Shown: one piece after another, positions 41,457-64,000 of the stretch | Position numbering within the stretch: the stretch's first letter is position 1 | How the letters are laid out: every line of letters begins with the position of its first letter | DNA from: an uncultured Pseudomonadota bacterium | Lineage (GTDB): Bacteria > Pseudomonadota > Gammaproteobacteria > Ga0077536 | Length of the DNA: 64,000 nucleotides | Assembly: GCA_903825645.1 (NCBI GenBank) | Contig: CAIKBL010000051.1 | Coordinates: forward strand, 62,001-126,000 | Direction: 5' to 3' | Program-made: the position numbers and the translations under genes | Notes under the pieces: model-generated | The model's input: only the letters and a program-made list of their open reading frames with translations | What the model was told of the DNA's origin: nothing | Databases searched by the model: none

Positions 41457-42131
41457 TCACTTCTCCTTCGATAGGGTTCTAAACAACTTAGGAATCGGAC
41501 CAGTTGGGACAGTGCCTTTCGGGGGCGCCAAGCTGCTTGGGCGCTCGCTGTGGCTTGTCCTTACGGCGGTTTATGCCGCCGTCGCATTTTTGCCACATTC
41601 GCGAACGAGAAAATCGTAAATTTCGCGCGTATGAAAAATCATTTATTTCGAATACCACCAGTTCGTTATATTCGTGCTGATGTAAGGAAAGTTCAGTCTT
41701 TTGTCGCTGAGGCGCTTGTGCTTGTTAGCAACACCGGACCGTTACACTCACCGAGAGCGAAAACAGGAACCGATGCGCTCGACGTCGCCCCCGAGAAGGC
41801 CCAGAAACTTGCCTTGTACGAGGAGCTTTATATAAAAAAAATATGACAAATAAATGACAGTTAACTTCAAATCCTAACTGAATCCAACAGTTTGGTTCTT
41901 TAGGGCGGGTAGAAACGACGCGTTTTGGCCAAACCTCGTCACGTGAACTTAACAATCAAGTGGGGCAGACTCGCAGCTAGCGTCGGCAAGAACGGGTAAG
42001 CCTCGATGCTAACGGCATGTTGCATATTCACAACTTCATACAAAAATGGCCACCGTGCTTTTTCGATATTCGGGTTGGTCAGGAGTAGAATTCGGGCTTG
42101 GCGCCTGGTGTACAGGTGGGGAGATGCAGAT
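41457..42131. other. Divergent intergenic region, porin leader and acyl-CoA dehydrogenase upstream region
   Basis: 675 bases without a supported gene. On the minus strand it would hold a porin leader of about 360 bases if the Pho-box promoter is used. That leader includes an ACGGCGG/CCGCCGT hairpin near 41560-41583 and an interrupted GCGCCAAG/CTTGGGCGC dyad near 41535. A 98-codon open frame at 41550-41846 has no recognisable features. No clear promoter for the plus-strand dehydrogenase was found. Confidence 0.6.
41827..41860 (-). promoter_or_regulatory. Pho-box-like promoter facing the porin gene
   Basis: On the minus strand CTGTCATTTATTTGTCAT (41860-41843) consists of two TGTCAT repeats exactly 11 bases apart, the layout of the PhoB box (CTGTCAT-N4-CTGTCAT). 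A TATAAA -10 (41832-41827) starts 11 bases after the second TGTCA, as in PhoB-dependent promoters where the box replaces the -35. Predicted start of transcription is near 41820. Confidence 0.65.
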
Positions 42132-45102: not shown

Positions 45103-45708
45103 TCAGCTGGCAGTGCGTTCCGTCGCTTTGGACGATCCTTCGCTCGTGGTCTTAGAAACCGCGCGCGTGCGGGCACGGTAGGGCCCTTGTTTGCGCCCAG
45201 ACAAGTACTTCACTTCGAGATAATTATACAAGGTCACCAACGCGTCTTCGGCGGGGACGGGCTTGCCGGTGAGCTCTTGTAATCGTAGCGCGAGATACCG
45301 CTCTGGAAAAGCCGACATCGAGAGTAGTTCGAGATCGTCGGCGTCGATGCGGGTCGTACGCGTTGCTGCGTCAATATTGATGATTTGATCAAGTCGCCGC
45401 GCATTCAGATTGAAATGGCCGATGAGTTGTGCCCCATGGGTCGCAAAAATCCGGAGGAGATCGGTTCGTTCCAGCGAGCTGTCGCAGAGCAGTTCAATCT
45501 CCGTAAGGGCAATCTTGACGAGGAAGCGAAAGACGTCCGACTCCCGGGCTTTTAGACGCCGGCCAATGGCTCGGATGCGTCCAAAATCCGACGTACTGAT
45601 GCGCAACGAGATGCTGCGCTTGCTGTTGTCATTGATGAGCTCGGTACCCAATTTTTTCAACGCAAGCGGTTTCGCTCGTGATTTTCCAGAAGTAGAGGTC
45701 TCAGGCAT
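45103..45708 (-). CDS. Hypothetical protein, possible ribbon-helix-helix DNA-binding
   Basis: A 201-residue basic protein that I do not recognise as a named family. Residues about 31-75 (SKRSISLRISTSDFGRIRAI then a helical RRLKARESDVFRFLVKIAL) fit a beta-strand followed by two helices, as in ribbon-helix-helix regulators. The middle is helical, and the C-terminus (from about 170) is basic and Ser/Thr-rich. It lies downstream of the TonB/porin operon on the same strand. A perfect palindrome sits 5 bases upstream of the start, which suggests autoregulation. Function is inference. Confidence 0.6.
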   Translation of the reverse strand: MPETSTSGKSRAKPLALKKLGTELINDNSKRSISLRISTSDFGRIRAIGRRLKARESDVFRFLVKIALTEIELLCDSSLERTDLLRIFATHGAQLIGHFNLNARRLDQIINIDAATRTTRIDADDLELLSMSAFPERYLALRLQELTGKPVPAEDALVTLYNYLEVKYLSGRKQGPYRARTRAVSKTTSEGSSKATERTAS

Positions 45709-45712
45709 GGTG

Positions 45713-45724
45713 TACCACGTGGTA
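45713..45724. promoter_or_regulatory. Palindrome TACCACGTGGTA at the start of the possible RHH gene
   Basis: A perfect 12-base palindrome immediately upstream of ATG 45708, covering the region where a ribosome-binding site would be. Binding there would block expression. No second copy was spotted in the other intergenic regions of the window. Confidence 0.5.
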
Positions 45725-45798
45725 TGAATAAGTTATGCCGTCGATGGTAAGTCGGAATAATGACGTGATCTTTACCAAATGATGACAAGGAATGCTGA

Positions 45799-46476
45799 CT
45801 ATTTCTTGGTCGCATCAATCGCGTTTTTTTCCAACTGTTGGTAGGCCTTGTCTTCGAGTGTCTGAATCTGGTTCTCGACTGAAACACTATTGAGGCCGGT
45901 CAAGGGCTCTCGCTGACGGAGCGCGTCCCAAACGGATTTTTGTTTATATCTCTGGAGCAGATTCTGGTTCAGCTGGTAAAGGGCGAGGTTCTTTTTTTCG
46001 GCATCCTGCAGCTCACGCGTAGTGACGGTCAGTTTTTCCTCCTGTCTTAACCGGAGCGCTCCAACCGTTTCAAGCTGGTGTAGAGTATCTTTATATTTAT
46101 CGACAACTTCGTGCAATTTTGCCGTCGTTTTTTCAAGACGATCGTGCGCCTTTTCGAGATTCGCCGAGATCTCCGCAAGTTGCTTGCCCGCGATCCCGAG
46201 AGCCGCCTCGGCTTTGGTGAGCGTCGCCTTCTGTACCGTCAGGTTATGGGTGGCATTTTCAATGGCCTTCGTCTTCTCGGTCAATTCGCCCTGGGCTTTG
46301 GCTAGATCAACTTCTGCTTTGGTTTTTTGCAGCGCAATTTGCTTCAGAAGACCCTGCGCTTTCATCAGGGCCTGTTGTGTCTGCTCCGGATTTTCAGCCA
46401 CTGCGCGGTCGATCGCCAAGGCATTCACTAAAATGATACTCAGGAGTAGCCGGACCAGCACGGAAATTTCAACCAT
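45799..46476 (-). CDS. Periplasmic coiled-coil protein of the TonB/porin operon
   Basis: A 225-residue protein with a signal peptide (VLVRLLLSIILVNALAIDRAVA) and then an almost unbroken heptad-patterned coiled coil from about 30 to 170 (for example LAKAQGELTEKTKAIENA, LEKTTAKLHEVVDKYKDTL). A short helical tail follows. No catalytic motif is seen. Its start is 10 bases after the porin stop, so it is coupled to it. It could bridge the outer-membrane porin and the TonB complex across the periplasm, which is inference from position and shape. Family not recognised. Confidence 0.75.
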   Translation of the reverse strand: MVEISVLVRLLLSIILVNALAIDRAVAENPEQTQQALMKAQGLLKQIALQKTKAEVDLAKAQGELTEKTKAIENATHNLTVQKATLTKAEAALGIAGKQLAEISANLEKAHDRLEKTTAKLHEVVDKYKDTLHQLETVGALRLRQEEKLTVTTRELQDAEKKNLALYQLNQNLLQRYKQKSVWDALRQREPLTGLNSVSVENQIQTLEDKAYQQLEKNAIDATKK

Positions 46477-46485
46477 AGAGGCAAC

Positions 46486-48207
46486 TCAGAATTTTGCGTT
46501 GATGTCGAACTGCAACACATCGATGGCGAGCGGCGGTCCATCTATTGTCGTAGAGGAAGACCAATAGGTACGCAGCCAAACATTCTTGGACAAGCCATAC
46601 TTGGCGACCAATCGATAACCCTTGGCATCTGTGCCACCGCGATGGAAATCATCATCCGTAAAAGCATCCAGGACAGCATCCCGCTGGAGGTAACGGTATG
46701 CGGCCGATACCTGCCAGTCGCCAAATTTACTGATCAAGGGCCAACCCACAGTCACATCGAATTGCCATCCGATCGTGCGGTTTGCGAATTGTGAAGCCGA
46801 GTTTTTTTGTGGTTGGTAAACGATGTTTGAATTCGCTAAGCGTTGTACGATTTGATTTTTGTCGAACCCGAAATTCTTGACGATATCCGTCGTCAGCACG
46901 ACGTGATAAGGCGCCAGATCGGCGAGATCCAGCGATCCAGTCAGATCCATCAGTTTGTAGTCGGAGGCCAATGCAAAAAGCTGATTAGCACCGGTGGTCG
47001 GGTTAGAAGTATCCGCTATATTGAAGAGTAGGTTTCCCTTCTGTAGGTACAGCGGCGCGGTGCTGTCATTCACGCCATTGCCGTTGATTGGGTTCTGCTT
47101 GCCTGCAATGTGGATGTAATCGTAGAAGGCGCCGCCTAGTTTCAATTTGCTTTGACTTTCAAATTCCCAGGTTGTCGTGGCTTGCGCGGCGGCCAGCCAT
47201 TTCTGCATGCCCGTAAACTGGACCTGCTGTAACGGGAACAAGCCAGCAGTCGTCGCGATCTGGCGATCTCTGCCAGCGCTATCGTCCAGACCATCACCCA
47301 CCAGGGAATAGCGATAGGTGGCGGCAACCCCGTCAAAATTGATGTCCTCATCCCAAACGAGATTGGTCGTAAAAAATGGATTTAACATGCGCCCAAAGCT
47401 CAACGTAAACCACGGCCGTCCCCCATTATCGCTTGGCGCATCGTACCGAAGGGATGCCAAGTCGATTTGAATCGGGAAGCGTTGCAGGGAGCTGCCCAAT
47501 GTCTGATTGAGCGAAACCGGCGTGGTCTCATCACCGGTCGCGACCCTGAAATCAACTGTCCAGTCGTCCGCGATCCGGGCTGTTAAGCCAATCCGCGCAC
47601 GTTCTTTCCACAAGTTTTGATCTTTTGAGGTATTCAGAAAAGCCTTGTTTCCGGCGGCAGACGCACCCCCGGCCGCATTCACCGCGAGGATATTCAGATA
47701 CGAATTGTTGGCGCTCAGCCAGGTCGGATTACCCTGACCGTAGAAAGTGGTGTCATTTCTAAAACGAAGATCGCCGTGGAATTCAACACTGTTTACCCAA
47801 GAGGGCAAGGCGTCAGGGGTACCCCAGCGCTCTTGTTTCGCCTTGGTCAGCACGTCATTCAGCACGTCCTCACGGAGTTCCGAGCGTACCTGCTCCCTGA
47901 TTTCCTGTTTCACGAATTCGGGCACATAGGGCACCCTTACTATTTTCTGGTTATCCGGCGGCGAGGCGGGGATCGGGCTCGCCGTCGCGCCAGTCGCGAC
48001 AGCGTCCTGCTCCGCTTTTTTCACCAGCGCCTTAGCGGCAGCCTCATTCAACACGCCTTGCTTCACCAGCGCATCCACCAGGCTTAGGACGGTCGCTTTA
48101 AGCGTCAGCAGATCTTGCTTTTCGTCCGCGCGAGCGGCAGTCGAGGATATGACGCCGCCGACCAGGGCGGCAACGCATGCGCCGGTTAGTATCGATGAAT
48201 ACTTCAC
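46486..48207 (-). CDS. Large putative porin in the TonB/ExbBD operon
   Basis: Outer-membrane beta-barrel precursor of 573 residues. It has a signal peptide ending near ARADE, a helical N-terminal part (LVDALVKQGVLNEAAAKALV, then a charged helix to about 130), and a barrel from EFHGDLRFRNDTTFY to the final FDINAKF with C-terminal Phe. It is related to the porin at 39885 and resembles the Pfam putative-porin family rather than TonB-dependent receptors: no plug domain or clear TonB box is present. Yet it lies 32 bases after tonB in the same operon, an unusual pairing. Confidence 0.87.
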   Translation of the reverse strand: MKYSSILTGACVAALVGGVISSTAARADEKQDLLTLKATVLSLVDALVKQGVLNEAAAKALVKKAEQDAVATGATASPIPASPPDNQKIVRVPYVPEFVKQEIREQVRSELREDVLNDVLTKAKQERWGTPDALPSWVNSVEFHGDLRFRNDTTFYGQGNPTWLSANNSYLNILAVNAAGGASAAGNKAFLNTSKDQNLWKERARIGLTARIADDWTVDFRVATGDETTPVSLNQTLGSSLQRFPIQIDLASLRYDAPSDNGGRPWFTLSFGRMLNPFFTTNLVWDEDINFDGVAATYRYSLVGDGLDDSAGRDRQIATTAGLFPLQQVQFTGMQKWLAAAQATTTWEFESQSKLKLGGAFYDYIHIAGKQNPINGNGVNDSTAPLYLQKGNLLFNIADTSNPTTGANQLFALASDYKLMDLTGSLDLADLAPYHVVLTTDIVKNFGFDKNQIVQRLANSNIVYQPQKNSASQFANRTIGWQFDVTVGWPLISKFGDWQVSAAYRYLQRDAVLDAFTDDDFHRGGTDAKGYRLVAKYGLSKNVWLRTYWSSSTTIDGPPLAIDVLQFDINAKF

Positions 48208-48239
48208 ACTTAATTTCCGTTCAGCTAGGACTAACAGGT

Positions 48240-48893
48240 TTATCGGGACGCCACTCTGAGCTTCAGGGGTTGAGGCATGTCTTTGGGACGCGCCTCAGTC
48301 ATGTGCAGGGCCGCGAGTGCTCGCGCCAGCGCGGCATCGATCTTCGGGTTGCCCGCCGAACCGACCAATTCGAATTTTTCGACGCTGCCGTCTTCCTTGA
48401 TCCAAATTTTGGCCACCACGGCATACTTAGCACCGCGGGCCGCGTCATCGTTAGCCAGACGGTCCTGCAGATCACGTTGGAACAGCCCGGCGTACCATCG
48501 ATTCCGATCTCCGCCCCCGATAATGCCGCGCCCGCCCTTATGGGCAGCCAGCCCAAATCCATCCGATCCGGCAACGCCCTCCGCATCAAGCCCCAAATCT
48601 TCAGAGGGCGGGGTGTCATCCGCCGCGGCCTTGTCGGGGACCGGATCTGCCTTTTGTTCGGGAACACTCACTTCTTCCTTGGGCGGTGGCTCTTCCACCT
48701 TAGGCGGTGGTGGCGGAGGGGGAGGGGGCTGCACCAACGAAATTTCCTGCACTTTCGGCGGCGGTGGGAGTCCACCGGCGCCGAGCCCATGCAGCAGGCG
48801 ATAACCGAGAAAACCCAACGTCAACATAAACAACACCGCCGCGATGACCGGCCCATGGCGACGTCCGAACGATTCTTTTTTTACCATCCGCAT
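48240..48893 (-). CDS. tonB: TonB-family energy transducer
   Basis: A 217-residue TonB-like protein with one N-terminal membrane anchor (about 15-35), a proline-rich rigid linker including a run of nine prolines followed by Lys-Val-Glu-Glu repeats, and a C-terminal TonB-type domain (about 140-217) with VVAKIWIKEDGSVEKFELVG and the NPKIDAALARALAAL helix. A glycine-rich segment (HKGGRGIIGGGDRN) precedes it. It would transmit the proton-motive force from the ExbB/ExbD pair encoded just upstream to an outer-membrane partner, most simply the porin encoded next. Confidence 0.92.
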   Translation of the reverse strand: MRMVKKESFGRRHGPVIAAVLFMLTLGFLGYRLLHGLGAGGLPPPPKVQEISLVQPPPPPPPPPKVEEPPPKEEVSVPEQKADPVPDKAAADDTPPSEDLGLDAEGVAGSDGFGLAAHKGGRGIIGGGDRNRWYAGLFQRDLQDRLANDDAARGAKYAVVAKIWIKEDGSVEKFELVGSAGNPKIDAALARALAALHMTEARPKDMPQPLKLRVASR

Positions 48894-48924
48894 GGGTAGC
48901 TCACCGCAGGGTGTAACGTCGTGG

Positions 48925-49335
48925 CTACTTGACTATTTTTTGCGTGACGAGACCAATGTGGGTAATGCCAACTTTCCCCACGAGATCGAGGACGTCCATG
49001 ACCAACTGATATTGAACGGTGGCATCGCCCTTGATAACGACCGGTAGATCGGGATTCGCGCCGTATAGCGACGTGAGCCTGGACTCGAGCTCTTGAATAC
49101 TCACCGGGTAGGTGTCGAGGTAGATGTTTCCTTCCGCGGTTATCGTTACGGCTTTCGTTTTAGGCTCACCGAGCGAGGGCGTCTTGCTGGCCTGAGGTAA
49201 ATTGACCTTTATTCCCTGCACAGACGCTGTGGTCATGATGATGAAGATCAGCAGCAATACAAAGGTCAGGTCGACCATCGGGGTGATGTTGATATCGTCG
49301 TACGGCTCGCTGTCGTCTTTAATCTCAGCAGACAT
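48925..49335 (-). CDS. exbD: Biopolymer transport protein ExbD
   Basis: A 136-residue proton-channel subunit. After a short cytoplasmic start comes the single membrane helix with the essential Asp (DINITPMVDLTFVLLLIFII), then a periplasmic domain with the usual VTITAEGNIYLD and PVVIKGDATVQYQLVMDVLD strands. Its AGGAAT ribosome-binding site overlaps the ExbB stop. Forms the channel with the ExbB-like protein. Confidence 0.95.
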   Translation of the reverse strand: MSAEIKDDSEPYDDINITPMVDLTFVLLLIFIIMTTASVQGIKVNLPQASKTPSLGEPKTKAVTITAEGNIYLDTYPVSIQELESRLTSLYGANPDLPVVIKGDATVQYQLVMDVLDLVGKVGITHIGLVTQKIVK

Positions 49336-49344
49336 ATCAGATTC

Positions 49345-51126
49345 CTAGGCGCCGTGTGCTTCGTTGAGTCTCGCCAAGAATTCATCCGCGAAGACCCGCA
49401 TGTCCGCGATACCTTCCTTGGCACGTGATCCTAAATAGTTGTAGCCAAACAAGGCCGGAATCGCGACACCCAGTCCTGCTACGGTAGCGAGCAGCGCCGC
49501 TGCCATGCCCGGCGCGATGGCTGAGATATTCACATCGCCGGTGGATGCGATCGTCGCAAACGTGACCATCACCCCCACCACGGTTCCTAACAGACCGATG
49601 AAGGGTCCGCCGGAAATGGCGATGGTCAGCAGGACCAGCAGACTGTTGATTTTCTGGCTCTCGCGAACCATCGTCGCGTCGAGCGAGGCACGGATAGAAT
49701 TGATGGATTTGGCATCGAGCCCTATGCCAGAGTGCGTTGCCGCTGCATCCAGCCTGCGCCGGACTTCGTCCAGACCCTGGCGGTAAACCCGGAAAAGCGG
49801 TGAGTCGCCAAAAGATGCCTCGCCTTCGACGAGCGCGTCAAGTTGGGTCGCGGTGACCTGGGTGTGATACGCATCGAGGAATCGCGCTGAGGCGCGACGG
49901 TTTCGGCCCAGCGCCGAGGCCTTTATAAACATCACGAGGAAAGCAGCCGCCGCCATCACGAGGCAGACGCCGATAACAGTCTGCTCCACGATCGCTTCCT
50001 TGTTACCGAAGACAAATTGCACGATGGTGCCAAAGCGACTGGCGGACTTCGTTTCGCCTTCGGTCCCAGCGTTATCCTGATTTTCGTCGGCCGAATAATG
50101 CATCACCAACTCGTTCTTCTCGCCTTCAATACCCGCTTCGGCCAGGAAGAAGTCAGGCGTTTTCGCGCCGGTGTAAAAACGTAACTCATCGAGCTGCATC
50201 GCAAGCAGACCCTCGCCGCCAACACCGCCACCAACGTTTATGGCCCCTCCCATTTCGGAGACGTTTACGGGCACTTTGCCTGCCGACTTTCCGTTAACGA
50301 AAAGTTCAAGCTGACCGCTGACGATTGAAACCGCCAGATGTGTCCATTGCCCTGCGGTGATGGGAGTTGGCGCGGTGACATCCATGGCCCCAACGCGTGC
50401 GACGACGTGGCCGCCCGACACGATGAGGCTAAACCGTTGGTCCCGGTCGCTCCGGTCCAAGAGGTATCCCACCGCCGTGGGGATGGCGTCGAATTTCACC
50501 CACAGCGAGGCTGCCCACCCCTTACCCATTAGTCGCAGGCTCGACGCATCCTGGACCTGGAAGGAGGAGGCGGTACCGCTCATACTCGCCCCGCTACCAA
50601 TGAGCGAAGCCGGATTCGAAATGGTGTGCCCGAGCGTCGGAACGGCATAGGCCGTACTGTCGACGACGGCCCCGGCAAGATCGGCGAAATGAAAATTTGC
50701 CGCCGTATCGACGTCAAACGTGTTGGCGATGTCATCCGCTTTTGTCGCCTTCTGGTTACCGAAATAAAGGTACAGCTTATTCTCTTTCGACTGGGGCAAA
50801 AGATTTGGCACCTTGACCCACACAAAGGCTATCTGCGAAGCCACGTCGAAGCGCTCTACGTGGTATTTCAACGGCGTCTTGTCGTCTCCGGCGATGATTC
50901 TGAAATCAGCCCCGCCTTCTTTTACATTCAAGAATTGCGGGAAATTTCCCGAATGCAGCCGTAACAGCACCGGCAAGTTGGCGACAGGTGTCGTCACATT
51001 GAGCCCGGCCACCGTCGTATCAACCGTGATCACCTTTCGCGATGACCAATCCGGGTTCCACCAAGCGAAGGCACTAGGCACGTGCAGGCTCAAAGCAAAA
51101 ATTGCGGCAATAACGAGACGTGCCAT
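49345..51126 (-). CDS. exbB: ExbB/TolQ-type channel protein with N-terminal DUF2341 and LamG-like domains
   Basis: A 593-residue fusion. It starts with a signal peptide (RLVIAAIFALSLHVPSAFA), then a DUF2341 domain opening with WWNPDWSSRKVITVD (about 22-130), and a concanavalin/LamG-like domain (about 140-350, with SLWVKFD and WTHLAVSIVSGQLELFVNG). A membrane helix follows near 395-420, then a MotA/TolQ/ExbB channel domain (about 425-590) with ISGGPFIGLLGTVVGVM and PGMAAALLATVAGLGVAIPA. Ordinary ExbB is about 240 residues. The added part faces the periplasm and probably binds glycan or protein. ATG 51126 gives the signal peptide; the frame extends to 51261. First gene of the operon. Confidence 0.9.
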   Translation of the reverse strand: MARLVIAAIFALSLHVPSAFAWWNPDWSSRKVITVDTTVAGLNVTTPVANLPVLLRLHSGNFPQFLNVKEGGADFRIIAGDDKTPLKYHVERFDVASQIAFVWVKVPNLLPQSKENKLYLYFGNQKATKADDIANTFDVDTAANFHFADLAGAVVDSTAYAVPTLGHTISNPASLIGSGASMSGTASSFQVQDASSLRLMGKGWAASLWVKFDAIPTAVGYLLDRSDRDQRFSLIVSGGHVVARVGAMDVTAPTPITAGQWTHLAVSIVSGQLELFVNGKSAGKVPVNVSEMGGAINVGGGVGGEGLLAMQLDELRFYTGAKTPDFFLAEAGIEGEKNELVMHYSADENQDNAGTEGETKSASRFGTIVQFVFGNKEAIVEQTVIGVCLVMAAAAFLVMFIKASALGRNRRASARFLDAYHTQVTATQLDALVEGEASFGDSPLFRVYRQGLDEVRRRLDAAATHSGIGLDAKSINSIRASLDATMVRESQKINSLLVLLTIAISGGPFIGLLGTVVGVMVTFATIASTGDVNISAIAPGMAAALLATVAGLGVAIPALFGYNYLGSRAKEGIADMRVFADEFLARLNEAHGA

Positions 51127-51575
51127 TGAGGTTTTATTCCGTATTTTTGATATTCCTAGGGCGCGAATTATCGAGACATAATTATTACAGGGGCGTGAAG
51201 ACGACTTCGAAATCGCCCCGACTCGATCAACCAAGACCATGAAAATAATGGAGAAATACATCGCTTTTCGATTCTGTTTGGCGACGCCACCCCAAAAACT
51301 AGTGTAGGCGGGAATAAGATTTTTAAAAAATTACAATATCGCCTTACTGTCTGGTTTTACTTAATTTATTTTTTTTATTGCGATCTCCAGGCAATGCCAA
51401 CATGGAATCTCTTCGAACGCTCCTCTACTGAATACGCACCCTGTGTGCTCACTAGCTGCGTGCTACTTCGACGATCGGTGCCTACTCGGATTTTTTTTTA
51501 GCTTCCCGCCGTGCCGCAAAATGACGTAGATTCGCGTCGCTTCTCGCGCCTTAACATCATCCTTGAATTTACAGC
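51127..51575. other. AT-rich divergent promoter region
   Basis: 449 bases between the ExbB operon (minus) and the TPR gene (plus), clearly richer in A+T than the genes beside it, with long T- and A-runs around 51320-51380. A hairpin with GGGGCG/CGCCCC arms and an inner GAAG/CTTC stem (51190-51219) lies in the presumed ExbB leader. No reliable -35/-10 pair could be fixed. Confidence 0.5.
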
Positions 51576-53898: not shown

Positions 53899-54720
53899 AT
53901 GAAAAATTGGATGAAACTCAATTTGTTAAGCAGTGCCATCGCACTGGCGCTGGCGAGCCAAGTGCAAGCCGCGGCAATTAGCCAGACAACGCAGACGGGT
54001 AACGGTAGTTCGCTTATTTTCACGCTTTTTGACACCACCAGCCCCACCGCGGGCGGCTATTCGTATGTCCTCGATCTGGGGACGCTAATGGGGAACGTCA
54101 CGGCCGGCACGGCGCCGACCACTTATACCCTGACTGGTTTGACTAGCAGCACGTTCACAGCGCCAGGCGGCACGGCGTTCACGTGGGACGTGGGTGCGGC
54201 AACCACTTCCAATTCTACCTACCAAGGATTCAAAGTGCTCACCACATTTGACGCCACCGCTACCCTGGGCCCGACAAGCCCGACTAATACCGGCGTAAAG
54301 AACATGGCGAATGGCCTGACTTCATTTGTAACCAATATCAATGCAGTGTTCACAACGAGCGGCCCTGGAATCATGAATGGCACCGGGCAGACGGCATCAG
54401 GCGGGTACCTTGCATACGACGCTAACGGCGACGCCGGCGCGTCGCGAGGGAGTAATTGGGGGAGCACTTTCGCGAATAGCAACGACGGCGGTACCTATGC
54501 GGATGGCGCGACACTATCGTTGTGGTTGATGAATAACACCGGAACCACGGGTTCTGCCAAACCGACACTGACGAATGAAGGCACTTTGACCCTTCACCTT
54601 AACGGCGCGAATGCGGCCACCTTGACCTTTGCGCCGACCGCGGTACCGGTACCCGCTGCCATTTGGCTGATGGGATCGGCACTCGTCGGGGTGGTGGGCG
54701 TCCGTCGGCGAAATGCGTAA
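53899..54720 (+). CDS. Secreted protein with VPxPA-CTERM sorting signal
   Basis: A 273-residue exported protein with a signal peptide (MKLNLLSSAIALALASQVQA), a Thr/Gly/Ser-rich beta-type middle with no recognised domain, and a C-terminal tripartite sorting signal. That signal is VPVPAAIWLMGSALVGVVG followed by the basic RRR, matching the VPLPA-CTERM group of PEP-CTERM proteins processed by exosortases. No exosortase is in the window. A PstS-like secreted protein follows after 42 bases. Likely attached to or released at the cell surface. Confidence 0.85.
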   Translation: MKNWMKLNLLSSAIALALASQVQAAAISQTTQTGNGSSLIFTLFDTTSPTAGGYSYVLDLGTLMGNVTAGTAPTTYTLTGLTSSTFTAPGGTAFTWDVGAATTSNSTYQGFKVLTTFDATATLGPTSPTNTGVKNMANGLTSFVTNINAVFTTSGPGIMNGTGQTASGGYLAYDANGDAGASRGSNWGSTFANSNDGGTYADGATLSLWLMNNTGTTGSAKPTLTNEGTLTLHLNGANAATLTFAPTAVPVPAAIWLMGSALVGVVGVRRRNA

Positions 54721-54762
54721 AAAAAATTGGGCTATCAATTCATAAATTCCCAGGAGATTACA

Positions 54763-56379
54763 ATGAATTCACTTAGATTTACGAAGATCGCCTCTGCCGT
54801 CGCACTTGCTTGCGCGACAGGAAGTGCGCTGGCGACAGCTCTTACAACGGCAATTGATGCCAGTACCTACAATGAAGCAAGCGCCAATCAAATTACGCTC
54901 AAAATCGCGGGATCTAGCGCGATGGACCCGGGCGTCGAGCGCTTGTTCCAAGTTCAGTTTGCCTCGGGTGGCGAGCTGTGCGCACCGGGCACGTTGAGCG
55001 AATATCGTTCGAGCGATAGCAACTATCGGCTGTTCATGTGCACGGTATCCACACACCAGGCGTCTGGCATTGCCGGCAAGACGTTGGCTGTTCTAAAGAC
55101 CTCGTCTGGCGGATCAGGTAAGGGCGTAGGATCCTTGATCCGATCCACAGAGAAAGCGACTATTTGGGCGACGAGCACTGCCACAAACATCACCACCACG
55201 GTGGCAGGTTGTGCGGTCACCAGCACGCCCCCCAGCTCGACGAATTTCGCCAGTTACAACCTCCACGATAGCTGTACGGCCAGCACGGAGTCGATTAACG
55301 CTGATGTCGGACTTTCGGACGAAGAGCCACAGGTTTTCCAGACAATTTTTGCCAGCGGCAAGCTCAGTAACTCTGAGTTGGCGGCTATTCCCGGAGCGGC
55401 TTTCGGGCTGACCGTTTTTGGGGTGCCGGTGACGCTCGGTATCTATGAACGTCTGCAGGCGATGCAGTTCCCGACCAGTAACGTATGCAATCCGCAGAAT
55501 GCGAGTTATTCCACGAATCAGGCTACGGACGCGTGCATGCCGAATTTGAAGCGTTCCACGATTGCGGGCCTTTATTCGGGACAGATTGATTTTAGCAACC
55601 TGGTCGCCGACGGCACGGGCCAGGTGGCAAAAGGGACTTCGCTTGATCAAGTGACCATTGCGGCTAATTCGTCAAACGGGAATACAGTGGCCGCACGTAG
55701 TGCGCTGTCGACGCCGACCATGAAGTTGGAGAGTCGCACTTCCACTTCAGGGACGCTGGCGTTATTCGAAACCTATTTCTTGGGTGAGCGCTGCAGCACC
55801 GGCGGGGTGACGATCAAGAAAGCACCGGACACCTCTGTTACCGAGAACTCGAACAGCACTAACGTCGCGCTAGCGTTGGATACTGATGACAAAGCGACGA
55901 CGGAAGTCGGCGCGATGGGTATTCTGACGACCGAAATCACCCCTGGAAGCCAGAATTGGCGTTTTGTCAAAGTCGACGGTGCGGCGCCGACGCTTATCAA
56001 TGTCAACAACGGAAGCTATCAGTTCTTCGCCGAAGGGACGATGCAATATCGAACAGCGACGGTAGGCGGACTGTCGACGCTCGCGACCGCGAACGCGAAT
56101 GGAAAAACGGTCGCTTTGGCGATGCAAAGTTTGTATGGAAATCCGAACGTGCAGAACGATCTGAACGTGGCCTTCCGACAAACTTTTGGCGATGCGGGCT
56201 TGATGTCACCCACCTCCTCTGGCAACACCTTGCCGACTCCACCTTTTGTGACAGATGGGGTTGGCGGCACGGGCGATCTTCGTACTTTTCCAGTCGCGAC
56301 AGTGACGCGTGGTGCGGCCGGCGCGCCCGTGACGTGCTCTGCACCTTCGGCAGTGGGCTCGGTCTCGGGTTCGCTCTAA
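54763..56379 (+). CDS. Secreted PstS-like (periplasmic binding protein-like) protein
   Basis: A 538-residue exported protein with a signal peptide (MNSLRFTKIASAVALACATG up to ALAT). The start of the mature part, QITLKIAGSSAMDPGVERLF, resembles the ligand loop region of PstS-type phosphate-binding proteins (TGASF/GSSA pattern), and GSGKGVGSLIRSTEK continues this. The protein is far longer than PstS (about 320), with many Ser/Thr/Asn residues and few cysteines. No pstCAB genes are nearby, so a surface or scavenging role is more likely than ABC transport. AGGAG precedes the ATG. Two terminators follow. Confidence 0.75.
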   Translation: MNSLRFTKIASAVALACATGSALATALTTAIDASTYNEASANQITLKIAGSSAMDPGVERLFQVQFASGGELCAPGTLSEYRSSDSNYRLFMCTVSTHQASGIAGKTLAVLKTSSGGSGKGVGSLIRSTEKATIWATSTATNITTTVAGCAVTSTPPSSTNFASYNLHDSCTASTESINADVGLSDEEPQVFQTIFASGKLSNSELAAIPGAAFGLTVFGVPVTLGIYERLQAMQFPTSNVCNPQNASYSTNQATDACMPNLKRSTIAGLYSGQIDFSNLVADGTGQVAKGTSLDQVTIAANSSNGNTVAARSALSTPTMKLESRTSTSGTLALFETYFLGERCSTGGVTIKKAPDTSVTENSNSTNVALALDTDDKATTEVGAMGILTTEITPGSQNWRFVKVDGAAPTLINVNNGSYQFFAEGTMQYRTATVGGLSTLATANANGKTVALAMQSLYGNPNVQNDLNVAFRQTFGDAGLMSPTSSGNTLPTPPFVTDGVGGTGDLRTFPVATVTRGAAGAPVTCSAPSAVGSVSGSL

Positions 56380-56733: not shown

Positions 56734-59700
56734 ATGAACCTTGATTTTGCAGCGGCTGTTTATTTTGTTTTGCGTTGGTCAAAGATCCCGGCCCGCCAAA
56801 TTCTGCGCTTCGAACTGGGATTGGGGCTGATTCCGGTAGCGGTGTCTGCTGCGGTGCAGGGGCCTTTGCCTGTGCCGAGTTCAAATTTCGTGACCGCCGG
56901 TAGCGCGAAATCACCCGTCGTTGTCGGCAACACGATGAATGTCACGCAAAGCTCGCCAAATGCATCGCTAGATTGGCAGAGCTTTAATATCAACCACGGT
57001 TACACTGTAAATTTTATGCAGCCGTCCTCGGCAGCAGTGGCCATCAATGAAATCCACCAAGCTAACCCGGTGCTCATTCAAGGGGCGCTAAACGCAAATG
57101 GGCAGATTTATCTGATCAATCAGAATGGCATCGTGTTCGGTGCTGGCGCTCAGGTCGATACGCACGCCCTACTAGCCTCGACGCTGGACATTACCGCGAC
57201 CGCGCTGCAAAAAGGGATAGTGAACGCTTTCAATCAAGGCGGCGCTATACAGCCGGCCTTCACGGCGGTGCTCGACGGTCAGGGACACCCGATCAACGGC
57301 GACGTCACGGTTGCGGCAGGGGCGTCGCTACAGACGTCGGGAACCGGTGGCCAGATCTTACTGTTCGGGCCCAACGTGACCAATCTAGGCACGATCAATG
57401 CGCCTGGCGGTACGGCGGCGCTCGCAGCCGGGAGCAAAATCTATATTCAGACGCCGACGACTGGCACAGGCCTGGTCGTTGAAGTGGGCAACGGTGGCAC
57501 CGTGACAAACGGGAGCGCGGCGAATGCGCAGATCACAAATCCGAGTGCGTTGCTTGGCCAGATCGTAGCTGATGGCGGAACGGCGTCACTCGTGGGGCTT
57601 GCGGTCAATCAAATGGGTCGAGTCACCGCAAGCACGGCGGTCAGGCAAAACGGGACGATACGTCTTTTGGCCCGCGAATCGACGCCGAGCGGTTCAGTGG
57701 TGTCGCCCAGCCGTGGCGGTGTCGTAACGATCGGACAGAACAGTGTCACGGCAGCAGATCCCGATATGAACGATACGTCGACGACGCTCGACGCGAATCC
57801 GCAACCCGCAGGTGTCGTTGACGTCCGGGGTGCGCAGATCGTGCTCAAAAAAGACGGTCTGGTCGATTCGCGTAGCGGCAACGTCAAACTCATCGCGGCC
57901 GGTGATGGTAGTGACGTGCCTGTTAAGGGGGATGGCTCGCGCGTGCTTTTGGAGAGCGGGGCAAAAATCGATACCTCCGGGGAGCGGGTTGCCTTACCGG
58001 CGGGACGAAATGCGCTGACGGTAAAGCTAGAGACCGCCGCGCTGGAAAATTTACCGGTTCAGCGCCAGGGGCCACTGTTAGGACAGACGATCACGGTTGA
58101 TGTCCGTCAACACGGCACAAATGCGGATGGGACCACGTGGGTCGGGACGCCACTGGCCGATTTGAACTCCGCGCTGGGCAACATTGGTCGCACAGTCGGA
58201 GAGCGCAGCACCCACGGCGGCACAGTTTCGCTAGACGGCGATAGCGTTATCCTGGCACCAGGCGCGGTGTTGAATGTCGGCGGCGGAAGTACGCAATACG
58301 CGAATGGGCCCGTGCAGACGACTATGCTCTTCAACAACGGGAAAATTACGGACATCGCAAGCGCCAATCCGAACGTTGCCTACAGCATCTACGGCACCGA
58401 ACGGGTGATGCACCCGAAGTGGGGCGGATTGGATACCTATTCGGTTTTCTATTCCGGGAATGACATCTTGGGTGGTAGCGGGGCTGGCTACACCAGCGGA
58501 GCCGATGCCGGCACGATTAATGTACAAGGGTATGGTCTGATCCTAGACGGCACCCTTTTTGGCGGCACCCTACCGGGGACACTGCAGCGTCTGCCCGCGA
58601 GTCTCCGGCTCGCCCCGGGTGCCGTGAGGCCTTACGATCAGTTACCTCTCGCCGGGGCGCTGTTGATTGGCGCGAGCATCGCGGAGCAACTCAACGCCGC
58701 GGTGCCGGACTTCGTGACCGGCTCGGTCACGATCGCACCGGTGACGGAACTCACGGCGCCAGGTTTGGCAAATTTTGACCCGCTTTTCGATGTGTTTCCC
58801 GCATCGATCACGAGCACCTACATCAACCCAGGGTGGTTTGGTAATGGAAAGCTCGGTCAACTGGCCATTTATAGCGACGGGGCGGTTAGTTTGCCCACGG
58901 GCACCACGCTCGATTTAGGTCCTGGCGGGACGCTAGTGGTAAAGGCGGGCGACATCGCCCTCGCGGGGAACCTCGTGGCGCAGGGGGGGGCGGTTACCCT
59001 CAGCGCGCGCAACACGGCAGATCAGGTCCGCACCGGAAGCTTGACACTGTCACCTACGGCGTTAATCGATGTTAGTGGCCAATGGGTCAACGATTTCGTC
59101 GCCGCACGAACGACGCCGGGTGCGGGCAGTCCGCCCCTTGTCCTCAACGGGGGCAATATCAGCCTGACAGCACACGAAGCGTTGCCGGGTCAAGGGGGAC
59201 TCAATCTGTTCGCCGGCAGCGTTCTTCGGGTAGATGCGGGCGCGGAGCTTTCTCTTAACGGCAAAATCAGCAGCGGTGCGGGCGGTAGTATTGGTCTCAG
59301 TGCGACACCCGTTGCGGGCACGCAGAATGTGTCGTCAATTTTTGACGCGACCCTGTCCGCTTACGGGCTGTCATCGGGTGGCAGCCTCTCGGTGACGGCA
59401 CCGGCAATCTGCTTCAGCGCGCTCAGTTGTGCCACGGCGCCTATCGCGCCGATTGTTTTTCAGCCGGCCTTTCTGCACACCGGGGGATTCTCGGCGTACA
59501 GTTTTACCGCAGTCGGTGGTGCGCTCACGGTCGAGAGCGGAACAACCCTTTTCCCAGAACAAGATAACTTAGTCCTTTCGCCGCTCGCGCAGAGTACGAC
59601 TGGCTTAGAGCTTAGTCAGGTGAGCCACCTCGCACGCCTCGCGGATTTCGCCCGTCAACCGGTCAATTTATCGCTCCGCGACCGGATAAACGGCAACCTC

Positions 59701-62700
59701 GCGGGCGTTGTCACGGATGCCAGTCTTCGCGCTGGCAGTTTTCTCAACGTGGAAAGGGGCACAAAGATAATCGGCGATCCAGGCGCGACGCTCAGTTTTG
59801 CATCGGATACGCGCGCCTACCTCAATGGCGCTGTAACGACGCCCGGTGGCAATATCAACGTGTCGATAACCAGCGGTATCGGGATCAATATTGGGGATTT
59901 TTTGGCCAGTCAGACGCTATGGCTTGGTCCGCAGGCGACGCTGGATACTCACGGCGTCTATATTGCCCAACCGATTGAGACGAATTTGCGGACGGGCGTC
60001 GTCTGGGGCGGTGGGAACGTCAATCTCAGTGCTTTGAGCGGTTATCTCGTGGCAGAGCCCGGTGCTCTCATCGATGTCCGTGGGACCCGGGCCGTCCTTG
60101 ATATTTCGCCCTACGGAGTCGGCACGAGTTTGGGTTCGGTACCGACCCTAGTCGCCTCGAATTCCGGTTCAATTGTATTGGATGCTGCAGAAGGTATTTT
60201 CTTCGGTGGCACGATTAACGCAGGGCCCACCATGCCGAGTTCAGGTGCGGGCGCGCTCTCAGTCCAGCTGAACGCGCAAACCTCGAACTATCTCGCCTAC
60301 GAGCAGAGCGGTCTCACTGGGGTGGCGCTTCCAGTCGCGCCAAGAACCCTGCACATTATGGACGCCAATCCGTTCCAGAATTCGAGTGCCGGCGCGCTGC
60401 GTCTCCAAGCAGATCCACAAACGACTTATGCGCTTTCGCCCGGCGGCGACGTCCCAACCACGTTGAACGGGCAGGGTTTCTTGGGTACCTCGCTGCTAGC
60501 GGGCGCTAGTCTGGGCGACCTCAAGCTTTCTGCGCGCAACCTGGATTTAGGCTCCGTAGTTCCTGGCCAAGTCCTCTTCAATGGCAATGTATCACTCGCC
60601 ACGTCGCGGTCGATTACGGTGAATAGCGCGAGCCTGGCATCCGACGGTGGCCATGTCCAGTTGAGCGCCCCGCACGTCGTGCTGGGCAATCAGGATGGTA
60701 ATTTGGACGGAACTGAACCGGGCGGTGCCTCCCAAGCGGTTTCGTTACCGCAAAGGGGCACAGGTCTGCTTACCATCGTGGCGGATACAATCGATCTGGT
60801 CGGCAAAGCCGTCCTGAACGGCTTCAGCTCCACCCATTTCTCGGCATCTGAAGATATCAGGGTCAGTGGCGTTCAGTCAGACCCGACTAGCCCGGTCCTG
60901 ACGGGGAGTCTGACCACGACGGGCGATCTCGCCTTCGCCGCCCGCGAACTGTACCCGACAACGCTCAGCCAGTTCTCGCTGAACGTCGTCCAGAATTCAC
61001 TCGGGGTCATCTCCCTCGACAGTACGGCAGCCCCGGAGCCCATACTTTCCGTGGGCGGCGCGCTCACGCTCCAGGCCCCGACCATCCTTCAGCGGGGGAC
61101 TTTGAAAGCGCCGCTGGGCAGTTTGACGCTCGCCGCGAGCAACCAACTGGCACTGAGCGCCGGCAGTCTGACTTCAACCTCGCTCGATGGAAGCACGGTC
61201 CCCTTTGGACGCGTCGAACTCGGCAAGGACTGGGTCTATATGCTCCCAGGCTCGGCAGGCGAGCTGGTGTTCACCAATAAAACGCGGACATTGCCTAGCC
61301 AGCATATTCTGCTCTCCGGGCCCGCCGTTACACTCGCCGCCGGAAGTGTCGTGGATGAGTCTGGCGGTGGCGATCTGCTTTCCTACGAATTCCAACCTGG
61401 CCTGAGCGGCACGAAGGATGTCCTCGCCGCGGGCGGACTCGCCAACACGTTCGCCATTGTGCCGACCCTGCATAGTGCCTATGCGCCGATTGATCCGCAG
61501 GAAATGTCTGCCGGACCAGACGCGCTCGGCTCAAGTCTGCGACTGGAGACGGGCGTCGCGGGGATTTCTGCGGGGTTGTACGCGTTACTACCTGCACGTT
61601 ACGCCTTGTTGCCCGGCGCCGTATTGGTGACGTCGGTGGCGGGATTTTCGGACCTTGGCGCCGGGCAACAGATCCCCGCGCTGGGCGGCGGCACGATCGT
61701 GGCGGGACGCCTTTCCTCGGCCAACGGATCGGAATACGCCAGCGTCTCTAGTGGGTTCCTTATCCGTACGGCGACCGACATTGCGAAGCTTGGGCAATAC
61801 GATCTACATACGGCTAATGCCTTTGGCGGCCTTGCGGGCCAGGCGCTCCCGCGTGATGGCGGCGTTCTGCAGATACAGGCCGGCTCAAGCCTTGCCCTCG
61901 GGGGGATCTTGAATGCCGCACCGGGGTCCGGCGGCGTGGGCGCCGAAGTGCAGATCACCGGGACTAGCCTTGCGGTCGTCGATGGCACGCCGTCCTCGGC
62001 CATCTCTCCCGGCGCACTGCTGATCGATGCGCGCGGTTTGGATAGGCTGGGTGCGGCAAGTATTCTCCTCGGTGGCTCACGCGCGAACGAGGGGGGAATC
62101 GATAACGTCACCGTCACCGCGCAGCGGGTGGAACTCGACGCGGGGGTTGCCGTGTTCGCCCCGGAGGTGATTCTTGCAGCCACCGACACGGTCCAGATTG
62201 ACGCAGGGGCAACCCTCTCGGGGACTGGTGCGGTGTACGGGAATCCACTAGGACTACGGGTGAGTGGGGATGGTGCATTCGTGCGTGTCGCGTCTGCACC
62301 CGCCGTTTCGTTCGCGCGTACTCAAGTCGCGGGACTGACCGGCAGCCTCAACATGGCGCCCGGCAGCCTCCTGAGTGCGACCGGTTCGATGTTGCTCGAT
62401 TCCACCCTGGATACTCACTTAGATGGAGCGCTTTCAGCGCACGGCGGCGCGGTTGCGCTGAGTGCGTCGCAAATCAGTCTGGGCGCGGTGACGGGAAGTC
62501 CCGCCGGCCTTACGCTCAATGACGCCCAACTTACCGCCTTGAACGCGGGATCCCTGAGTCTCACCAGCCGTAGCGCGTTAGATATCTATGGGCCAACTAT
62601 CCTGAACCTGCAGTCACTCGCGCTGGATGCCGTCGCGCTGCGGGGCTTCGGCAACCTCGGCGATACGGCACGAATAGATGCGCAAACCTTAACGCTGTCC

Positions 62701-64000
62701 GACAGCACCTCAGGTAGCGCGCTGCAGGACGGCAGTGGCGCGGGCGCGTTGGCAATCGAAGTTAATCGGCTCAACTTCGGGCGTCAGCTGGTTGCGCTCA
62801 GTGGCTTCGCGGAAACGACGCTCACGGTCCATGACGAGATCGTCGGCACCCGCGACACGGGCGGCATGTTGTCCCGGGGGCCACTGAAGGTTTTCGCGCC
62901 ACGGATGACGACCACCGATGGCGCGAGCTTCTCGCTGAACAGTGATGCGGCGTTGCAGATTTTCTCTTTGGCACCGAACCCCATCGCGGGCATTACCGCG
63001 TCAGGGCTGGCAGGGAAGATCACGCTGTCCGGCGCGAGCTTGCTGTTTGATAGCACCTTAGAGGTCCCCTCCGGGGAGGTTAGTCTCCGCGCGACCTGTG
63101 GGGGACTCAATGCAGTGGTCTGCGGGACGACGGCCGGCGATTTAGTGTTGGGCAGTCACGCACTGATTAACGTCGGGGGGCAATCAGCACAGTTCTACGA
63201 CACAAGCGCCGCAGCGCCGGGTGGAACGGTCTCATTGGCCGCCGCATCAGGCGATGTGATGATCACCTCGGGTGCCAACCTGAACCTAGCCGCAGCCGCG
63301 CCCGGCGGTTCGGCCGGCTCGCTGACGGTCGCCGCATCGAATGGCCAGTTTCAACTCGCCGGGACGGTCAATGACGGCGCTACCACGGCGTCCAACTCAG
63401 GACGGTTCTCGCTGGATGTGTCTACCCTACCGAATTTTTCAGGGCTCAACGCCGCGCTCAACGCAGCCGGTTTCCTAGCTGAACGAGATTTTCACGTGCG
63501 AGGCGGCAATTTGATCGTTTCAGCAGGAGATGCGGTGAAGGCGACCATCCTGAATCTGACCGCAGACAACGGCGCGATCGGTATTGCAGGAAAGCTGGAC
63601 GCCAGTGGGCAGCAGCAGGGTGGCTCAATTCGATTGAACGCACTGAATACGATCGAAGTCCTTCCGGGGGGCGTGCTCGATGCCTCTGCGCGGGGAACGC
63701 GTGGTACGGGTGGCAACATCAATCTGAGCAGCATCACCGGGGGGATCCTGCTGGATAGCGGATCGGCTACCGATGTCTCCGGGACACTGTCAGGGGGCGT
63801 CATCCATGCTCGCGTCAGCGCGCTCGAGGCGCTCACGCTCACCAACGCCGACCCGACGACCTATCAGGTCGCATTGAACGGAATTGCTGGCGCCAGTAGC
63901 GTAGTTCTCGAGGCCTATCAAACGGCGGCTGATCTGATCTCAGGACTCAACTTTGCTCAGAATTGGATGGCGAATAATGCCAGCAGTGTCGGCGCTGGTT
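56734..64000 (+). CDS. Filamentous-haemagglutinin-type exoprotein (TpsA), 5' part, open at window end
   Basis: One reading frame runs from ATG 56734 to the window end without a stop (at least 2422 codons). The N-terminus carries a two-partner-secretion haemagglutination domain at about residues 60-300: MNVTQSSPNASLDWQSFNIN, VNFMQPSSAAVAINEI, and NGQIYLINQNGIVFGAGAQV are its hallmarks. The rest is Gly/Ala/Thr/Leu-rich with repeated short beta motifs, as in a long right-handed beta-helix. The signal region is atypical, with a basic stretch (RWSKIPARQILRF) before the hydrophobic core. No TpsB/FhaC transporter is in the window; it may lie beyond the end. There is no clear Shine-Dalgarno sequence. 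Likely an adhesin or surface fibre. Confidence 0.9.
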   Translation, partial: MNLDFAAAVYFVLRWSKIPARQILRFELGLGLIPVAVSAAVQGPLPVPSSNFVTAGSAKSPVVVGNTMNVTQSSPNASLDWQSFNINHGYTVNFMQPSSAAVAINEIHQANPVLIQGALNANGQIYLINQNGIVFGAGAQVDTHALLASTLDITATALQKGIVNAFNQGGAIQPAFTAVLDGQGHPINGDVTVAAGASLQTSGTGGQILLFGPNVTNLGTINAPGGTAALAAGSKIYIQTPTTGTGLVVEVGNGGTVTNGSAANAQITNPSALLGQIVADGGTASLVGLAVNQMGRVTASTAVRQNGTIRLLARESTPSGSVVSPSRGGVVTIGQNSVTAADPDMNDTSTTLDANPQPAGVVDVRGAQIVLKKDGLVDSRSGNVKLIAAGDGSDVPVKGDGSRVLLESGAKIDTSGERVALPAGRNALTVKLETAALENLPVQRQGPLLGQTITVDVRQHGTNADGTTWVGTPLADLNSALGNIGRTVGERSTHGGTVSLDGDSVILAPGAVLNVGGGSTQYANGPVQTTMLFNNGKITDIASANPNVAYSIYGTERVMHPKWGGLDTYSVFYSGNDILGGSGAGYTSGADAGTINVQGYGLILDGTLFGGTLPGTLQRLPASLRLAPGAVRPYDQLPLAGALLIGASIAEQLNAAVPDFVTGSVTIAPVTELTAPGLANFDPLFDVFPASITSTYINPGWFGNGKLGQLAIYSDGAVSLPTGTTLDLGPGGTLVVKAGDIALAGNLVAQGGAVTLSARNTADQVRTGSLTLSPTALIDVSGQWVNDFVAARTTPGAGSPPLVLNGGNISLTAHEALPGQGGLNLFAGSVLRVDAGAELSLNGKISSGAGGSIGLSATPVAGTQNVSSIFDATLSAYGLSSGGSLSVTAPAICFSALSCATAPIAPIVFQPAFLHTGGFSAYSFTAVGGALTVESGTTLFPEQDNLVLSPLAQSTTGLELSQVSHLARLADFARQPVNLSLRDRINGNLAGVVTDASLRAGSFLNVERGTKIIGDPGATLSFASDTRAYLNGAVTTPGGNINVSITSGIGINIGDFLASQTLWLGPQATLDTHGVYIAQPIETNLRTGVVWGGGNVNLSALSGYLVAEPGALIDVRGTRAVLDISPYGVGTSLGSVPTLVASNSGSIVLDAAEGIFFGGTINAGPTMPSSGAGALSVQLNAQTSNYLAYEQSGLTGVALPVAPRTLHIMDANPFQNSSAGALRLQADPQTTYALSPGGDVPTTLNGQGFLGTSLLAGASLGDLKLSARNLDLGSVVPGQVLFNGNVSLATSRSITVNSASLASDGGHVQLSAPHVVLGNQDGNLDGTEPGGASQAVSLPQRGTGLLTIVADTIDLVGKAVLNGFSSTHFSASEDIRVSGVQSDPTSPVLTGSLTTTGDLAFAARELYPTTLSQFSLNVVQNSLGVISLDSTAAPEPILSVGGALTLQAPTILQRGTLKAPLGSLTLAASNQLALSAGSLTSTSLDGSTVPFGRVELGKDWVYMLPGSAGELVFTNKTRTLPSQHILLSGPAVTLAAGSVVDESGGGDLLSYEFQPGLSGTKDVLAAGGLANTFAIVPTLHSAYAPIDPQEMSAGPDALGSSLRLETGVAGISAGLYALLPARYALLPGAVLVTSVAGFSDLGAGQQIPALGGGTIVAGRLSSANGSEYASVSSGFLIRTATDIAKLGQYDLHTANAFGGLAGQALPRDGGVLQIQAGSSLALGGILNAAPGSGGVGAEVQITGTSLAVVDGTPSSAISPGALLIDARGLDRLGAASILLGGSRANEGGIDNVTVTAQRVELDAGVAVFAPEVILAATDTVQIDAGATLSGTGAVYGNPLGLRVSGDGAFVRVASAPAVSFARTQVAGLTGSLNMAPGSLLSATGSMLLDSTLDTHLDGALSAHGGAVALSASQISLGAVTGSPAGLTLNDAQLTALNAGSLSLTSRSALDIYGPTILNLQSLALDAVALRGFGNLGDTARIDAQTLTLSDSTSGSALQDGSGAGALAIEVNRLNFGRQLVALSGFAETTLTVHDEIVGTRDTGGMLSRGPLKVFAPRMTTTDGASFSLNSDAALQIFSLAPNPIAGITASGLAGKITLSGASLLFDSTLEVPSGEVSLRATCGGLNAVVCGTTAGDLVLGSHALINVGGQSAQFYDTSAAAPGGTVSLAAASGDVMITSGANLNLAAAAPGGSAGSLTVAASNGQFQLAGTVNDGATTASNSGRFSLDVSTLPNFSGLNAALNAAGFLAERDFHVRGGNLIVSAGDAVKATILNLTADNGAIGIAGKLDASGQQQGGSIRLNALNTIEVLPGGVLDASARGTRGTGGNINLSSITGGILLDSGSATDVSGTLSGGVIHARVSALEALTLTNADPTTYQVALNGIAGASSVVLEAYQTAADLISGLNFAQNWMANNASSVGAG

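What the first reader, a model, noticed from the sequence alone, without database searches (positions are those of the whole stretch)
45103..51126. TonB-ExbBD operon dedicated to a plug-less porin, with a giant ExbB
Six collinear genes: ExbB-like with periplasmic DUF2341/LamG-like domains, ExbD, TonB, a putative porin, a periplasmic coiled-coil protein and a possible RHH protein. Tight spacing implies one unit. TonB systems normally serve plugged receptors. Here the only outer-membrane partner is a barrel without a visible plug or TonB box, and the channel protein itself reaches into the periplasm. This could be an energised gate for a porin or an outer-membrane remodelling or export machine.
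Basis: partly seen in the sequence, partly recalled or inferred. Interest (0 to 1): 0.78.

Follow-up and report, generated by a model that had tools for sequence, protein, structure and literature searches.

The report
Phosphate-regulated Ton-porin module of two-partner secretion
These genes encode a proton-powered (TonB) motor, a plug-less outer-membrane pore and a long periplasmic rod that almost always occur in genomes with one kind of giant secreted surface protein and appear to be switched on by phosphate starvation; a Pseudomonas aeruginosa counterpart is known but its function is not.

Summary
In detail: ExbB (DUF2341 + LamG + MotA/ExbB), ExbD, TonB, a full-length Porin_5 barrel and a coiled-coil protein form a tight operon (gaps 9-32 bp). 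The RHH-like gene follows after 90 bp, probably with its own promoter. The core is conserved: ExbB precedes the porin in 55/55 relatives with enough contig, TonB in 67/68. A giant DUF3739 two-partner-secretion exoprotein (TpsA) starts at 56734 and its TpsB lies just past the window; they are the only ones in the genome. In two genome samples, full-length Porin_5 and DUF3739 TpsA co-occur in 12 of 13 and 14 of 14 carriers. The gene order is that published for P. aeruginosa pdtB-exbB2-exbD2-tonB4-PA0696-PA0697, whose promoter PhoB controls; Pho boxes recur upstream of the relatives' exbB, and the window's is the second-best match in 64 kb. The modelled porin is a plug-less 16-strand barrel with a near-invariant periplasmic RVxYVP segment, a candidate TonB contact. 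Best reading: a phosphate-starvation TPS with its own Ton motor acting on a porin. Whether it helps TpsA display or imports what TpsA binds is open.

The parts
49345..51126 (-). ExbB-type proton channel with signal peptide and about 370-residue N-terminal periplasmic region (DUF2341 + LamG-like) ahead of the first TM helix
   Evidence: Pfam MotA_ExbB 7e-27, Laminin_G_3 4e-15, DUF2341 4e-15; matches TolQ/ExbB structures at residues 372-588
48925..49335 (-). ExbD
   Evidence: Pfam ExbD 9e-31; Asp in the TM segment (PMVDLTFVLLLIF) read from sequence
48240..48893 (-). TonB with proline-rich periplasmic stretch and TonB_2 C-terminal domain
   Evidence: Pfam TonB_2 1e-6
46486..48207 (-). Porin_5 porin: N-terminal periplasmic helices, near-invariant (V/I)RVxYVP(E/D) segment (residues 90-97), helix 97-126, then 16-strand plug-less barrel
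   Evidence: Pfam Porin_5 5e-158; AlphaFold2 pLDDT 81; motif conservation in 63 sequences; Foldseek hits are porins
45799..46476 (-). Exported coiled-coil protein (in the position of PA0697): modelled as one continuous helix, residues 30-179, plus conserved C-terminal region (EP...VE.EN)
   Evidence: alignment A3; AlphaFold2 pLDDT 88.6; directly follows the porin in 68/76 relatives
45103..45708 (-). RHH-like putative DNA-binding protein; accessory, not core
   Evidence: no Pfam hit; 6/65 relatives at this place; heads exopolysaccharide genes in relatives
51173..51190 (-). Predicted Pho box CTGTAATAATTATGTCTC, 47-64 bp upstream of the exbB ATG
   Evidence: second-best match in the whole window to a matrix built only from relatives; conserved position in relatives
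45771..45788 (-). Predicted Pho box TTGTCATCATTTGGTAAA upstream of the RHH-like gene
   Evidence: third-best match in the window
56734..64000 (+). TpsA exoprotein (filamentous haemagglutinin family), 3422 aa, runs past the window; carries the only DUF3739 domain in the genome
   Evidence: TPS domain 1e-19; DUF3739 3e-40 at contig C51:128493-128825; TpsB follows at L158:11992-13644
54727..56379 (+). PstS/PBP-like secreted protein directly upstream of tpsA; homologues sit next to tpsA in four other loci
   Evidence: cluster 18; weak PstS-family match; homologue L074 matches PBP_like_2 2e-6

Best explanation
The locus is a phosphate-starvation two-partner secretion (TPS) system with its own Ton motor. 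Shown by sequence: exbB-exbD-tonB-porin-coiled coil is a conserved unit, and full-length Porin_5 and DUF3739 TpsA occur in nearly the same genomes. Predicted: PhoB switches the operon on. Inferred: ExbB-ExbD uses the proton-motive force to move TonB; TonB contacts the porin, most likely at the periplasmic RVxYVP strand before the barrel, which is where a TonB box sits in a classical receptor; the coiled-coil rod and the DUF2341/LamG domain of ExbB hold the inner- and outer-membrane parts together. The porin then works with the TpsA fibre exported by TpsB. Two outputs fit: (1) Hxu-like scavenging, in which TpsA captures a phosphorus-containing ligand and the energised porin lets it in (about 0.4); (2) energised display, release or anchoring of TpsA through its conserved C-terminal tail (about 0.35). 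The confidence below is for the shared core: a PhoB-regulated, TPS-coupled Ton module whose outer-membrane partner is the porin.
For: Collinear ExbB 55/55, ExbD 66/67, TonB 67/68, CC 68/76 among loci with enough contig. Class sample of 185 genomes: DUF3739 in 12, all within the 13 with full-length Porin_5 (p 6e-18). Phylum sample of 398: Porin_5 full-length 14, DUF3739 14, identical sets (p 4e-26); DUF2341 in 13 of those 14 and in no other. TpsA upstream of exbB in many relatives, FHA-TpsB-ExbB-ExbD-TonB-Porin-CC in the closest. Pho boxes upstream of exbB: 14 of 61 loci at 11/14 or better against 0.34 expected, mostly at a shared distance from the start. The P. aeruginosa operon with the same order is PhoB-dependent (PMC4971064). 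RVxYVP nearly invariant in 63 porins and not found in the barrel-only paralogues.
Against: No physical contact between TonB and the porin was tested; only single chains could be modelled. TPS export is held to need no energy source (PMC5422565). P. aeruginosa mutants in tpsA, tpsB, the tonB homologue or PA0696 stayed fully virulent in zebrafish (PMC2729926), so no phenotype anchors the function. The co-occurrence p values ignore shared ancestry. The Pho-box matrix was built from sites chosen for fit. An orphan Porin_5 in Methylomagnum lacks adjacent exbB-exbD-tonB. One relative has the Ton trio 28 kb from the porin. DUF2341-ExbB trios also occur without a porin.
Confidence: 0.65

Rival explanations
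1. Secretion helper: the Ton motor and porin mainly serve export, anchoring or release of the DUF3739 TpsA, making this an energised type Vb secretion system; uptake is not involved.
For: Strict pairing with TpsA; single modules accompany two or three TpsA genes in G552, G375 and G457; conserved TpsA C-terminal tail (I/V)xV(E/D)(V/I)LGFG after a flexible linker, 49 of 55 by pattern; isomerase and YbjN genes in the same operon in G305 and plasmid loci.
Against: Other TPS systems export without Ton (PMC5422565); the porin is a separate barrel, not part of TpsB.
Confidence: 0.35
2. Hxu-like uptake: TpsA captures a phosphorus-containing ligand at the surface and the TonB-energised porin imports it.
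For: Pho boxes; PstS-like neighbour of tpsA; HxuCBA is a TPS plus TonB-dependent transporter used under iron limitation (PMC5422565).
Against: No ligand known; a porin could pass phosphate without energy; one module can accompany several TpsA genes.
Confidence: 0.4
3. The Ton trio serves an ordinary plugged receptor elsewhere in the genome and the porin is a passive neighbour.
For: Two Plug-domain receptors exist in the genome.
Against: Both are on other contigs; seven other MotA/ExbB-family proteins are available; conserved pairing with the porin across classes.
Confidence: 0.06
4. Structural role: the complex is an envelope-spanning brace or remodelling machine during phosphate starvation, with no transport.
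For: A 150-residue modelled helix in the coiled-coil protein and the large periplasmic ExbB domain; exopolysaccharide genes nearby in relatives.
Against: Needs no channel and does not explain the strict pairing with TpsA.
Confidence: 0.1

Closest known systems
Pseudomonas aeruginosa PUMA3/VreI regulon: pdtA, phdA-pdtB-exbB2-exbD2-tonB4-PA0696-PA0697-PA0698-PA0699
   Same: Same order ExbB-ExbD-TonB-porin-PA0697 position, next to TPS genes; PA0696 is listed as a putative outer-membrane porin; PhoB control (PMC2729926, PMC4971064, PMC7035377).
   Different: In the window tpsA-tpsB are a separate plus-strand unit; no YbjN, isomerase or phdA gene in the operon; no VreAIR-type sigma system noticed nearby. 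PAO1 sequence itself could not be compared.
HxuCBA haemopexin-haem system of Haemophilus influenzae
   Same: TPS exoprotein plus TpsB plus a TonB-driven outer-membrane step, induced by nutrient limitation (PMC5422565).
   Different: HxuC is a TonB-dependent transporter of the classical kind; here the barrel is a 16-strand porin and the Ton complex is encoded with it.
Classical TonB-ExbB-ExbD complexes
   Same: ExbB/ExbD/TonB domains present and collinear.
   Different: ExbB carries DUF2341 + LamG in the periplasm; no plugged receptor in the unit.

Membership tests
Ton energy complex | ExbB proton channel, ExbD and TonB encoded together | tested here: met
   domains; gaps 9 and 31 bp
Porin_5 (PF16930) | full-length profile match | tested here: met
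   E 5e-158, profile 2-535 of 535
TonB-dependent transporter | plug domain inside a 22-strand barrel | tested here: not met
   16-strand barrel without plug; porins as structural neighbours
TonB-dependent transporter | TonB box contacted by TonB | tested here: inconclusive
   near-invariant RVxYVP segment in the right place; contact not testable
Two-partner secretion | TpsA with TPS domain and TpsB with POTRA_2 | tested here: met
   TpsB just outside the window
Pdt/PUMA3-type module | gene order ExbB-ExbD-TonB-porin-PA0697-type next to TPS genes | tested here: met
   against the order in PMC2729926 and PMC4971064; in the window itself the TPS genes are about 5.6 kb away on the other strand
Pdt/PUMA3-type module | PhoB control | tested here: inconclusive
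   Pho box predicted and conserved; no expression data
Pdt/PUMA3-type module | sequence homology to PA0693-PA0697 of PAO1 | not testable with these tools
   no named P. aeruginosa record was reachable; bridged by G305 and Klebsiella plasmid loci
Pdt/PUMA3-type module | VreAIR cell-surface signalling genes | not tested
   none noticed near the operon; genome not searched for them

The most novel reading that the evidence does not exclude
A plug-less porin is a true TonB client, energised through a periplasmic RVxYVP strand, and this makes a whole class of DUF3739 two-partner secretion systems proton-powered.
Probability: 0.4. Interest if true: 0.82.

Novelty: new member of a known kind. Interest (0 to 1): 0.55.

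Why it matters
TonB is known to drive plugged receptors, and two-partner secretion is thought to run without an energy source. A conserved module that ties a Ton motor, a plug-less porin and one class of giant exoprotein together, apparently under phosphate control, would extend both rules and help explain an uncharacterised operon of P. aeruginosa. It gives concrete residues to test: the porin RVxYVP segment and the TpsA C-terminal tail.

Tried and rejected
Viral contigs: no relatives of the porin. Literature on DUF2341 with ExbB and TonB, on Porin_5 and on DUF3739: nothing on such an operon apart from the P. aeruginosa papers and a remark that DUF2341 occurs on ion-channel A subunits. Solved structures by sequence: only TolQ/ExbB and weak lectin-like matches for ExbB, none convincing for the porin. 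The RHH-like gene as a core part: rejected. A simple consensus scan for Pho boxes in the window was at chance level in number of matches; the signal appeared only when relatives' upstream regions were compared. Terminator and promoter scans were uninformative.

Full report
Observation. Six minus-strand genes at 45103-51126 are real. ExbB has a signal peptide, DUF2341, a LamG-like domain and the MotA/ExbB channel. ExbD, TonB_2, a full-length Porin_5 (5e-158) and an exported coiled-coil protein follow with gaps of 9, 31, 32 and 9 bp; the RHH-like gene comes after 90 bp.

Conservation. A scan of genome contigs with the porin alignment gave 509 relatives, 80 kept, mostly Gammaproteobacteria with many Methylococcaceae and some Betaproteobacteria. 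In loci with enough contig, ExbB is upstream in 55/55, ExbD in 66/67, TonB in 67/68, and the coiled coil is next in 68/76; in most of the others an ankyrin-repeat protein lies between. These 80 were chosen by similarity to our porin, so the independent test is the genome samples below.

The missing partner. Upstream of exbB in many relatives is a giant filamentous-haemagglutinin TpsA with DUF3739; the same-genus genome reads FHA-TpsB-102 aa-ExbB-ExbD-TonB-Porin-CC-RHH. In the window's genome the only DUF3739 TpsA starts at window 56734 and runs past its end, followed by the only POTRA_2 TpsB. In 185 genomes of the class, DUF3739 occurs in 12, all among the 13 with full-length Porin_5. In 398 genomes of the phylum the two sets are identical, 14 and 14, and DUF2341 occurs in 13 of them and nowhere else; the fourteenth has its porin near a contig end and no TpsB detected, so a gap in its assembly is likely. 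Chance values are 6e-18 and 4e-26 if genomes are taken as independent, which they are not; the carriers span many families.

Known counterpart. The published P. aeruginosa operon phdA-pdtB-exbB2-exbD2-tonB4-PA0696-PA0701 with pdtA nearby has the same order, PA0696 being a putative porin and PA0698/PA0699 a YbjN protein and an isomerase (PMC2729926, PMC4971064, PMC7035377). The 2009 paper already noted that TPS, ExbBD and PA0696 homologues travel together. 

Regulation. PhoB binds and drives the P. aeruginosa promoters (PMC4971064). Upstream of exbB in 61 loci, Pho-box scores of 11/14 or more occur in 14 against 0.34 expected, 10 or more in 28 against 3.7, mostly at a shared distance from the start. 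A matrix from relatives only, run over the window, ranks first 41843 (upstream of a second porin), second 51173 (upstream of exbB) and third 45771 (upstream of the RHH-like gene) among all positions on both strands. This is prediction, not a measurement.

Structure. The porin model (pLDDT 81) has 16 barrel strands, no plug, N-terminal helices, a low-confidence linker with the RVxYVP segment, and a helix before the barrel; neighbours are porins such as OmpM1, MOMP and DcaP. R91, Y94 and P96 are conserved in 62, 63 and 62 of 63. A relaxed pattern finds the segment in 77 of 80 relatives but in no barrel-only paralogue; the one pattern match among the paralogue loci is in an unrelated-looking ORF of L030. 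More distant members vary: VRVQYVP or VRVPYIP in some, and a few were not matched by the pattern. The coiled-coil protein is modelled as one 150-residue helix plus a conserved C-terminal part. TpsA ends, after DUF3739 and a flexible stretch, in a conserved (I/V)xV(E/D)(V/I)LGFG tail, 49 of 55 by pattern, also seen before a further extension in other groups.

Interpretation. The evidence supports a phosphate-starvation TPS with a dedicated Ton motor whose outer-membrane partner is the porin. Step by step: the operon and its pairing with TpsA are shown; PhoB control is predicted; TonB-porin contact, the role of the rod and the output are inferred. For output, uptake (0.4) and help with TpsA display or release (0.35) remain open. 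Some genomes carry several TpsA genes with one module, and some carry extra DUF2341-ExbB-ExbD-TonB trios without the porin, next to type II secretion or V-type ATPase genes, so the trio is reused.

Verdict. A real, conserved and interesting unit, belonging to a known but functionally uncharacterised system rather than a new one.

Noticed in passing
window 39885-41456 (-), box 41843-41860 (-): A second Porin_5-like gene (barrel-only match, 6e-26) without the RVxYVP segment; the best Pho-box match in the window (1 mismatch to consensus) lies about 390 bp upstream on the same strand.
   Followed up: partly
window 53899-54720 (+): Secreted protein ending in a VPxPAAxWL...RRR sorting tail (weak PEP-CTERM / VPLPA-CTERM), directly upstream of the PstS-like gene and tpsA.
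   Followed up: partly
L065 2357-11895; L067 1503-12143; L068: DUF2341-ExbB-ExbD-TonB trios without a porin, next to type II secretion genes (GspC, GspD, GspE) and a disulfide isomerase in one genome and next to V-type ATPase subunit genes in two.
   Followed up: partly
L064, L083, L091, L092, L152: XrtA/PEP-CTERM-type exopolysaccharide export genes (Wza-like, DUF2490, chain-length determinant, kinase) lie near or after the module; the RHH-like gene often heads them.
   Followed up: partly
L074 14998-16737: Orphan Porin_5 on a Methylomagnum plasmid beside FHA, TpsB, PBP-like protein, Cax and PhoU genes but without adjacent ExbB-ExbD-TonB.
   Followed up: no
L136, L140, L147, L151: A roughly 270-aa ankyrin-repeat protein is inserted between porin and coiled-coil genes in Thiobacillus/Gallionella-type loci.
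   Followed up: no
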